This document shows, piece by piece, positions 32,905 through 35,900 of a DNA stretch of 64,000 nt (positions are counted from its first letter, which is position 1; every line of letters starts with the position of its first letter). The stretch lies in assembly GCF_029633865.1 (NCBI RefSeq), contig NC_079224.1:23090177-23154176 (forward strand), read 5' to 3'. The translations under genes were made by a program, and so were the position numbers. The notes under the pieces are model-generated. The model saw only the letters and a list, made by a program, of their open reading frames with translations. It searched no databases and was not told the DNA's origin. The DNA is from Lampris incognitus (lineage: Eukaryota; Chordata; Actinopteri; Lampriformes; Lampridae).

Positions 32905-35900
32905 TCAAATCAGGTCAGCCACATTCATAGGCATCTCCTCCACAGTTGTATTGTAAAATGTCTCAATGTCCCGAAGAATTCTCTTGTCTTCCTCAGTGAC
33001 AAAGTTGATAGCAACACCTTTTCTGCCAAATCGGCCACCACGGCCAATTCTGGGATAAAAGAATAAAAATAAATAAGCAAATAGAAGCAAGTAACTTCAA
33101 TAAAAATATTCCATAGTACTGATGTGAAATTTTGGGTGGAACTACTTTAAGTCTTACTTTACCTATGAATGTAATTTTCTCGGTTTGTAGGGAGGTCATA
33201 GTTTATGACCAGGGAAACCTGCTGCACATCAATTCCACGAGCCTGAAGGGAGACACACACAAAAAACCCCAAAAACAATTTAGTCGACTCCAAAAGCAGA
33301 CATATGATTACAATCCAGTATCACCTGAGAATAAGTAACAGATTCCTACATTTGGAGAAAACCCATTGTTCCTAACCGTTTTAACTGCTCAGTCATTTAT
33401 GGGACTGGTGCAAAAAAAATAAAATAAAAATCCAGGATGAATACATGGTTCTTAAGAGGTTAGATGCACTTTCAGCAAATAGCTTTGTTGTGATGTTCAT
33501 TCTGTTTTATCTGTCCCAATACGAACCAGAAGGTCAGTTGTAATCAACACTCTACTGGAGCCAGATCTGAACTCCCTCATGATCACGTCACGCTCCTTTT
33601 GCTCCATATCTCCATGCTATGCAGGGGGGGCACAAAACGTTAACTGTAGCAACAAACTCATCTTTACAAAATCAAGGCAAAAAACACAGCACCTTTTATT
33701 TGCAAAGGCAAAGGGAAGAGCAGATTGTACCAGAGCGGAGACTGTGAAGTCCCTAGCATGCATCTTTTCAGTCAGCCAGTCAACTTTTCTCCTGGTGTTC
33801 AGGAAGATGACAGCCTGGGTGATGGTCAGAGTTTCGTACAGGTCACATAATGTGTCTAGTTTCCACTCCTGGAGAAAGCGAACAAGCAATTATCACGTGC
33901 AGTGAATCATTCAATTGGCAAAAAATAACAAGAGTAATGAACCATCCGTTATAAGTGTTGCATAGAATCTTGAGACAAAGAGCATTGGACATTAAGAAAG
34001 CGGTCCCCCCAAGCCTCACTTTCAATTCTGTGTCTTTAGTCTCCTTCTTTGGTGTGCCCATGCTTACACTGCCACAAGAGTTAAACCATTTAGGCTCGAC
34101 TCACATAGTTTCAGCAGGGTGCTTGAAAAAGAAGGGGGACTTCTGGCCTTCACACCAGTGAGGCTGGCCATTCAAAATGCACAAGAAAATAAATGAATAA
34201 ATAAATGCATGCACAGAACTACCCACCTCTCGTTCAACATTAATGTAGAACTGCTTAATACCCTCCAGGGTGAGCTCTTCCTTCTTCACTAAAATGCGGA
34301 TAGGCTCTCGCATGAACTTTTTGGTCACCTCCAATACATCAGCTGGCATTGTGGCAGAGAGCAGGACCACCTGAGATAAAGGCACATGATTTTATATGGA
34401 ATATAAACAAAATTGAATTTTTTTTTCTTCCCCCAAAGTCGACAGATCAATAAGAACATCAAAAGTTAGGCCATAGCTGTGGCACTGGGCTTTGAGACAG
34501 AGGTCAAGGAACATTAAGAAAGAGGTTCGACCACGTCTCATTTGCAGCACACTGCACCATGATCTCCTTCTGCGCAATACTCTGCTAGCATTATTGCATG
34601 GAACAGAGAAACGTGGACCACACAATTTTAGCAGAGTTCTTTTAATGCAGAAGGGTGTCTGAAAGTAAATCTTGATTCAGAGTGAAAACTGTAACCCAAA
34701 GGAGTTGAATCAAGTGCAACTGGACTTGGTATATATCCGTTTAGACGTTTCGCCTCTCATCCAAGAGGCTTCCTCAGTTGGTGCCTTTCTGACTAGACCA
34801 ACCTAGTCTGACTGGCTGGTGATGAGACTCAGAATTTATCCTCTTTGGAGTCATTGTCAGAGCTATAGATGTCCATGGCTCTGACAACGACTCCAAAGAG
34901 GATAAATTCTAAGTCTCATCACCAGCCAGTCAGACTAGCTTGGTCTAGTCAGAAAAGCACCAACTGAGGAAGCCTCTTGGATGAGAGGCGAAACGTCTTC
35001 ACGGATATATACCAAGTCCAGTTGCACTTGATTCAGCTCCTTTGGATAACCATGACCTGGATGAATGAACATTCACAGACATGAAAACTGTAACCTTTTC
35101 CAAATAGAGAACATGAGATGCTTACTTGAATGTTTGTGCTTAACTTCTGGAAGATTTCATAGATTTGATCTTTGAACCCTCGGCTTAGCATCTCGTCAGC
35201 TTCATCCAGAACAAACATCTTGATCCATTTTGGCGCTATATAGAATGAACACAAACCATTGGAACTCACATTTTCACAAGCAAAATATAGGATGGCAGGG
35301 AAGATGTGTTTTTCTTTAGCCGAGTAAGATACAATGAAATGATCTTATACTTACATAAATACCTCCTGTTAAGCATGTCAAACACACGGCCAGGGGTGCC
35401 CACCACTATATGAGGGGCCTCAGCCTGGAGCTTCTGCATTTCACTACGGACATTTGTTCCACCAATACAGGCATGGCACGTTGCCCCCATGTAGTCACCC
35501 AGAGCCAGAATTACTTTCTGAATCTAATGGAAGGGAGGAAAGAAAAAGAAAATGTTTTGTAGTTATGTACTTCAGGGGGTTAAAACAGTAGAAAAGGCAT
35601 AGGGGTGTAGAATTTACTTCATGAGTCAGACATTTTCTGAGCAAGACCTTACGTTAAATGACAGAACCCATTGCTCATTTTATGAAAATGTATGACCCAT
35701 TTGGTTTTGCATCAGTCAAGAAAGAAAAAACTAGTTTCAGGACCTACAGACATCCTGTAACCTGCTTCCGAGTGATCAGTCAAGATGTAATTCTCTCCAT
35801 TCTTTATGGGTCAGTCCCGAAAGATGGTATGCCATCACATCACTCAGTTTCACGCCACAACACATGAGTTTATTCAAACAAAAAATACAGAAGCTAGGTC

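What the first reader, a model, noticed from the sequence alone, without database searches (positions are those of the whole stretch)
34697..35081. Inverted-dimer retroposon in eif4a2 intron 6, between a splice donor and a snoRNA
Seen: two 168-base arms about 96% identical in inverted order around a 14-base loop, flanked by a 14-bp target duplication. In the eif4a2 transcript this would fold into a nearly perfect 168-bp duplex starting about 80 nt after the exon 6 donor and ending about 40 nt before the intronic H/ACA candidate. Inference: the insertion arrived already palindromic, since both arms lie between one pair of duplications. It could be an ADAR editing substrate and could affect intron folding or snoRNA processing in a highly expressed gene.
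Basis: partly seen in the sequence, partly recalled or inferred. Interest (0 to 1): 0.78.

Follow-up and report, generated by a model that had tools for sequence, protein, structure and literature searches.

The report
Penelope retroelement inserted as inverted dimer
The hairpin in this gene is an incomplete copy of a common jumping element of the Penelope type, whose way of copying itself often leaves two head-to-head pieces at one site, so it is a real and instructive but not a new kind of feature.

Summary
At 34697-35081 two arms, about 96% alike in inverted order, lie between one pair of 14-bp duplications in an eif4a-type intron, 41 nt from SNORA81. It is a piece of a Penelope-like element (PLE). 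The arms are its pseudo-LTR; 36 extra bases at one end match the published PLE "tail". In the same genome this pseudo-LTR adjoins PLE reverse-transcriptase and GIY-YIG coding sequence, and one longer copy (L036) has the same inverted arm and a duplication. The 40-nt tail occurs 6,779 times. Of 30 consecutive exact tails, 17 carry an inverted segment, 11 of them ending at one site about 35 nt inside the tail end. Inner junctions differ (19 kinds in 22 copies) and arms of one copy share rare variants, so the palindrome was probably made at insertion, not inherited. Best model: both target strands prime a cDNA at two neighbouring RNA sites, and the cDNAs join head to head. Simple cDNA fold-back fails for 4 of 49 measured copies and for L038, whose tail-less arm is clearly longer, but may make others. 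Effects on the gene, editing or the snoRNA are untested; predicted snoRNA folding is unchanged.

The parts
34683..34696 (.). left target site duplication, TGAAAACTGTAACC
   Evidence: perfect 14-nt direct repeat with 35082-35095
34697..34869 (-). inverted, tail-less pseudo-LTR arm; its outer end is reference position 1388 (1388-1392 in 20 of 22 inverted copies)
34872..35045 (+). direct pseudo-LTR arm
35046..35081 (+). 36-nt one-sided tail with a probable start codon of the PLE reading frame at 35052; this copy lacks 2 bases of the tail found in other copies
   Evidence: in L036 the tail runs on into a frame open for 44 codons; the 40-nt tail counted 6,779 times with up to 2 mismatches, reversed control 0
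35082..35095 (.). right target site duplication
34371..35125 (-). host intron of the eif4a-type gene, donor at 35125
34475..34655 (-). SNORA81 (H/ACA snoRNA) in the same intron
   Evidence: 75.1 bits, gathering score 45
57697..58146 (-). second inverted copy, 13-bp duplication, different inner junction
28967..29171 (+). third inverted copy, shorter arms around a TA-rich centre, 15-bp duplication
58660..58734 (+). single-sided, 5'-truncated copy with tail inside a LINE reading frame, about 10-bp duplication
57430..57516 (+). PLE endonuclease C-terminal coding fragment beside an inverted pseudo-LTR of a related family (57084-57427)
   Evidence: 75.9% identity over 29 aa, E 8.8e-10, to the L040 endonuclease
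61397..61583 (+). direct pseudo-LTR with tail of the related family
   Evidence: local alignment score 65 against the window copy's arm and tail, highest of 4,000 shuffles 46

Best explanation
An ORF-less, 5'-truncated insertion of a Penelope-like retroelement lies in an eif4a2-type intron as two head-to-head pseudo-LTRs. Shown: linkage of this pseudo-LTR to PLE RT and GIY-YIG sequence in the same genome; one insertion with one duplication; tightly clustered outer ends; variable inner ends. Inferred: the element's protein cuts both target strands in a stagger and each 3' end primes reverse transcription of PLE RNA, one at the outer site (end of the tail), the other at a second site about 35 nt further in. 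The two same-sense cDNAs stop at varied points and are joined head to head, sometimes at short matches or hairpins, and gap filling makes the duplication. The palindrome is thus a by-product of two-ended priming. In the transcript it should form a long RNA duplex by default, most likely without a selected role.
For: Membership: L040 has an ORF with GIY-YIG (E 3.7e-4) followed by the family pseudo-LTR about 240 nt later. L036 has RVT_1 (E 4.6e-9); its 5' pseudo-LTR runs through the tail into a frame open for 44 codons, and its whole insert, inverted tail-less arm included, has a duplication of about 15 bp. Outer ends: 20 of 22 inverted copies at reference 1388-1392 on the tail-less side, 22 of 22 at 1423-1427 on the tailed side; of 30 consecutive exact tails 17 have an inverted segment, 11 ending at 1385-1397. 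Inner ends: 19 distinct head pairs in 22 copies. Arms of one copy share minor states 11 times, permutation mean 2.2, 0 of 2,000 as high. The tail-less arm reaches at least 30 nt further upstream than the tailed arm in L010, L011, L074 and L089, 4 of 49 measured, and in L038. Published: the Anolis PLE protein cuts and extends both target strands and starts at two neighbouring RNA sites that bound the tail (PMC11167929).
Against: The tailed arm is the longer by 30 nt or more in 10 of 49 copies, the tail-less arm in 4 of 49, the direction fold-back predicts. Arm heads of one copy lie closer than chance in two of three sets (median 21 nt, permuted mean 93, 1 of 5,000 as low, n = 16; tail set 96 of 5,000) but not in the 22-copy set (2,549 of 5,000). 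The window copy, L002 and L003 share one head pair, L015 and L021 another, so descent from a palindromic copy is not excluded for those. Six of 17 inverted segments end outside 1385-1397, and 3 of 17 (L068, L083, L084) show no duplication. Only 6 of 42 arms have their own partner as nearest neighbour. A palindrome centre can lose bases after insertion. GIY-YIG scored 21.2 bits, under Pfam's cut-off of 22.6. No enzyme test was possible.
Confidence: 0.7

Rival explanations
1. Fold-back: one tailed cDNA is made, its 3' end folds on itself at a hairpin in the pseudo-LTR and is extended, giving the second arm. Arkhipova et al. 2013 proposed self-priming for PLE inverted repeats, on an antisense template.
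For: Heads coincide more than chance in two of three sets; where arms differ by 30 nt or more the tailed arm is the longer in 10 of 14; both arms share template variants; published suggestion (PMC3846280, Discussion read). L036 fits it too, since its first cDNA would hold the copied stretch.
Against: Predicts a tail-less arm that is never the longer, yet it is in L010, L011, L074, L089 and L038, and by about 19 nt in the window copy. Does not explain the clustered stop about 35 nt before the tail end. Later centre deletion could rescue single cases.
Confidence: 0.25
2. Palindromic master: an already inverted copy is transcribed and re-inserted whole.
For: Many copies have about the query's length (that search favours them), and a few share a head pair (L001, L002, L003; L015, L021).
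Against: 19 distinct head pairs in 22 copies. Minor states are shared within copies far above permutation. In window copies 1 and 2 the informative columns group arms within copies and none groups left with left.
Confidence: 0.05
3. Two separate insertions or an assembly artefact.
For: Palindromes are hard to assemble; L035 shows a head-to-head pair without a detected duplication.
Against: One perfect duplication around both arms; 19 of 20 fetched palindromes have an 11-15 bp duplication, 4 of them with one mismatch; the twentieth, L015, lies in a CA repeat.
Confidence: 0.02
4. The hairpin has been taken up for a function in the host gene, for example editing-linked control of splicing or snoRNA release.
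For: Its position between donor and SNORA81 and the very stable fold.
Against: The family is abundant (6,779 tails); its arms diverge by 3.8%, copies on average by 3.4%; the predicted snoRNA fold is the same with and without it. No expression data.
Confidence: 0.03

Closest known systems
Penelope Pen2a_Av of Adineta vaga (PMC3846280; passages and Discussion seen)
   Same: Inverted pseudo-LTR beside a direct one, a 31-bp tail on one of them, inverted arm 37 bp shorter, 9-bp duplication, start of the ORF within pseudo-LTR and tail
   Different: Most copies sampled here lack the ORF, the family is very abundant, and arm ends were measured over many copies
Poseidon_Ac (PAc) of Anolis carolinensis (PMC11167929; parts 1 and 2 of 4 seen)
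   Same: RT and GIY-YIG domains, pseudo-LTR, a 30-40 bp tail bounded by two RT start sites; both target strands cut and extended in vitro
   Different: PAc has a hammerhead ribozyme; no Rfam match here. PAc starts 111-118 nt into its ORF; here the tail ends 32 nt after the ATG of the frame that runs on in L036, or about 100 nt after an upstream ATG, so the true start is open. No inverted dimer is described in the parts I saw
LINE-1 twin priming (PMC2837659, search listing only)
   Same: Inverted truncated copies between one duplication
   Different: In L1 the two pieces are different parts of one RNA (recalled); here both are the same 3' part, with clustered start sites

Membership tests
Penelope-like elements (PLE) | Reverse transcriptase in the element's reading frame | tested here: met
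   L036:2540-4330 RVT_1, 36.7 bits, cut-off 29.6; no PDB sequence match at E 0.01. That the RT is telomerase-like was not tested
Penelope-like elements (PLE) | GIY-YIG endonuclease | tested here: met
   L040:4045-5022 PF01541, E 3.7e-4, but 21.2 bits against a cut-off of 22.6; the L036 copy codes for a relative 95% identical over 279 aa
Penelope-like elements (PLE) | Pseudo-LTR on both sides of the ORF, direct or inverted | tested here: met
   L036: inverted arm 1733-2099, direct piece 2098-2216 leading to the ORF, 3' pseudo-LTR up to 5215, duplication around all
Penelope-like elements (PLE) | 30-40 nt tail at one end, within the start of the ORF | tested here: met
   36 nt here; in L036 it continues as [16 protein letters not shown]..., open for 44 codons before a stop, and L070 holds a relative of that peptide. 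That this frame is the protein's true start is inferred, as the L036 frame is broken
Penelope-like elements (PLE) | 5' truncation and target duplications of variable length | tested here: met
   11-15 bp in 19 of 20 palindromes, L015 in a CA repeat; single-sided truncated copies
Penelope-like elements (PLE) | Hammerhead ribozyme (reported in several PLEs, not required) | tested here: not met
   No Rfam hammerhead match at E 5 (window element) or E 10 (L036 1700-2300); a GATGA..GAAAC core is visible by eye only
DNA foldback transposon or MITE | Symmetric inverted ends and a duplication of fixed length | tested here: not met
   One-sided tail; duplications of varied length
ADAR editing substrate | A-to-G mismatches in RNA reads | not testable with these tools
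   no RNA reads; only the duplex prediction

The most novel reading that the evidence does not exclude
PLE retrotransposition is two-ended by nature: the enzyme primes a cDNA from each target strand at two separate fixed start sites, so about half of all insertions are born as inverted dimers, and the family seeds its host with thousands of ready-made RNA hairpins, some in introns.
Probability: 0.45. Interest if true: 0.65.

Novelty: new member of a known kind. Interest (0 to 1): 0.46.

Why it matters
How Penelope-like elements complete insertion is open; the 2024 in vitro study says that later steps are yet to be validated. This genome holds thousands of tail-marked insertions whose junctions record the process. 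The sample here places the tail-less end of most inverted copies at a narrow site about 35 nt inside the tail end and finds some arm lengths that simple fold-back does not allow, so the competing ideas can be told apart by counting junctions. It also gives a source of long intronic RNA duplexes that needs no chance meeting of two insertions.

Tried and rejected
Scans of viral contigs and genome contigs for one family motif found nothing, as did a search of papers for four 16-base family words. Rfam microRNA matches to the hairpin are all below gathering score, and two of the four families match both strands; rejected as effects of a near-perfect hairpin. Hammerhead ribozyme: no match. Pfam found nothing for the 34-aa endonuclease fragment or a 29-aa tail peptide, and PDB gave only weak hits, best E 0.022 to a designed protein; the link came from the genome later. 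A palindromic master, suggested by equal copy lengths, was dropped. Fold-back was weighed again when I checked the report: L036, which I had counted against it, does not exclude it, because its long first cDNA holds the copied stretch. With that copy removed and all heads counted I lowered two-ended priming from 0.7 to 0.6 and raised fold-back from 0.17 to 0.25. A search for a paralogous empty site of the intron (window:34380-34680) did not complete. Craig et al. 2021 and Cervera and De la Pena 2014 are not held.

Full report
Observation. The inverted repeat and the 14-bp duplication are real and far beyond chance (z -37). Arm identity is 95.7% over 163 columns. The gene on the minus strand is of the eIF4A type: three exon translations match eIF4A-I over 141 of 141 residues, eIF4A-II over 124. 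SNORA81 and SNORD2 lie in its introns, which fits eif4a2 (recalled). The donor is at 35125 and the last intron base at 34371.

Asymmetry. The insert is not a plain palindrome: 36 bases at 35046-35081 have no partner. The window holds three more copies: two inverted ones (57697-58146 minus, 28967-29171 plus) and one single-sided one (58660-58734), each with its own duplication. A second, related family lies at 57084-57427 (inverted, no tail) and 61397-61583 (direct, with tail). The window copy's arm and tail align to it with score 65, against at most 46 in 4,000 shuffles. A coding fragment at 57430-57516 beside the inverted one later matched the PLE endonuclease (E 8.8e-10).

Family. The window's genome (1.48 Gb, 537 contigs, unnamed) was searched with the element: 84 matches from 40 scored of 2,087 candidates. 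Fifteen further places matching mainly the right arm were fetched. In L040 an ORF with GIY-YIG (21.2 bits, E 3.7e-4, cut-off 22.6) is followed by the pseudo-LTR; L036 has RVT_1 (E 4.6e-9). In L036 the 5' pseudo-LTR passes through the tail into a frame open for 44 codons from an ATG in the tail, then a stop; a relative of that peptide is in L070. So the tail probably holds the start of the ORF, but the L036 frame is broken and an ATG further upstream is possible. L036 as a whole has an inverted tail-less arm, the ORF region, a 3' pseudo-LTR with tail, and a duplication. This matches the published anatomy of Pen2a of Adineta vaga and the tail of the Anolis element. Hammerhead ribozyme: not found.

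How many. The 40-nt tail with up to 2 mismatches occurs 3,222 + 3,557 times, with 0 in the reversed control.

Outer ends. Twenty palindromes fetched by similarity to the window copy (one is the window copy itself) were examined for duplications: 19 of 20 have 11-15 bp, four of these with one mismatch; L015 lies in a CA repeat. With two window copies added, 20 of 22 tail-less ends lie at reference 1388-1392 (exceptions L017 at 1377 and 28967-29171 at 1384), and all 22 tailed ends at 1423-1427. A rerun with harsher scoring moved a few ends. That sample is biased towards copies like the query. A second sample by tail alone (20 of 40 scored places; among the first 23 rows the window copy and two already fetched places were skipped) has 11 of 20 with an inverted arm ending at 1390-1396, ten of these with a duplication of 12 bp or more and L056 with 7; one (L055) ends elsewhere; 8 have none. 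A third sample is the first 30 exact tails listed along contig C1: 17 of 30 have an inverted segment, 11 ending at 1385-1397 and 14 at 1366-1397; the others are L081, L084 and L068. A duplication was found in 14 of these 17, not in L068, L083 and L084. The remaining 13 of 30 are single-sided, 7 with a duplication found. Inverted arms under about 20 nt, or beyond the fetched stretch (L066 reaches its edge), would be missed. Exact tails favour young copies. If ends were spread evenly over 328 positions, 11 of 17 in that interval would have probability 4e-12; the interval was chosen after seeing the data.

Inner ends. Head pairs are of 19 kinds in 22 copies; L001, L002 and L003 share one and L015 and L021 another. 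Over a 131-nt core of 21 copies (28967-29171 dropped as too short), divergence is 3.4% within copies and 3.8-4.3% between (left with left 4.3, right with right 3.8, left with right 4.0). Minor states shared by both arms of a copy number 11, against a permutation mean of 2.2 and a maximum of 9 in 2,000. Only 6 of 42 arms have their partner as nearest neighbour. In window copies 1 and 2, a two-column indel and substitution site and one further column group arms within copies, and none groups left with left. So the palindromes were mostly made one by one, from the same or like RNA. Arm-to-arm gene conversion would give the same pattern and is not excluded.

Mechanism. Tail-first fold-back predicts that the tail-less arm never reaches further upstream than the tailed arm. 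Of 49 copies with measured heads (22 + 11 + 16; L068 left out), the tail-less arm is longer by at least 30 nt in 4 (L010, L011, L074, L089) and the tailed arm in 10. L038, not in those sets, has its tail-less arm longer by 145 nt, with an 11-bp duplication. The window copy differs by about 19 nt in that direction. Two cDNAs started at two sites, one from each target strand, explain these copies and the clustered outer ends. The Anolis enzyme cuts and extends both strands and has two neighbouring start sites bounding the tail. Against it: the commoner direction of the length difference is the one fold-back predicts, and heads of one copy coincide more than chance in two of three sets (1 of 5,000; 96 of 5,000 in the tail set, 2,549 of 5,000 in the palindrome set). 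A shared RNA end, pausing at hairpins, or fold-back in part of the copies would account for that. I put two-ended priming near 0.6 and PLE membership near 0.97.

Effect on the host gene. The duplex is predicted. The MFE fold of the SNORA81 stretch within the intron is the same with and without the element. Nothing here tests editing, splicing or snoRNA levels. The window copy's duplex is long for the family: among 15 inverted copies of the third sample (L068 and L084 left out) 4 have an arm overlap of 100 nt or more.

Literature. Seen: parts 1 and 2 of 4 of PMC11167929; passages and Discussion of PMC3846280; passages of PMC8969392, PMC7599744, PMC7229834 and PMC12910113. Apart from PMC11167929 and PMC3846280, the listings of searches showed, by titles and abstract starts, no paper on the insertion mechanism of PLE inverted copies. 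Subscription papers, the first fish PLE paper (recalled) among them, are mostly not held. The family may be in Repbase, which I could not check.

Noticed in passing
33953-34136, 34475-34655, 35770-35845, 36443-36514 (all minus): Two SNORA81 and two SNORD2 genes in the same host gene, apparently duplicated between introns.
   Followed up: no
57084-57427 and 61397-61583: A second, related PLE pseudo-LTR family; the copy at 57084 is split by about 190 bp resembling an L2-type LINE end (recalled) and lies beside an endonuclease coding fragment.
   Followed up: partly
58471-60896 minus: Broken non-LTR retrotransposon reading frames with an RVT_1 match, carrying a single-sided PLE copy with its own duplication.
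   Followed up: partly
L035:2778-5224: Head-to-head pair with tails at both ends, about 1 kb apart, no duplication found; probably two insertions.
   Followed up: partly
L040 reference positions 1027-1235: Tandem units of about 61 nt seem to lie just upstream of the pseudo-LTR, seen as shifted matches.
   Followed up: no
28967-29171: Inverted copy whose centre is a TA-rich microsatellite, possibly grown at the head-to-head joint.
   Followed up: no
L068: A tail preceded by an inverted piece of the ORF region (reference 850-552) rather than of the pseudo-LTR, like LINE twin priming; no duplication found.
   Followed up: no
2015-2452, 8187-8541, 11274-11652, 14963-15359, 46220-46660: Another repeat family of about 430 bp with five copies in the window.
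   Followed up: no
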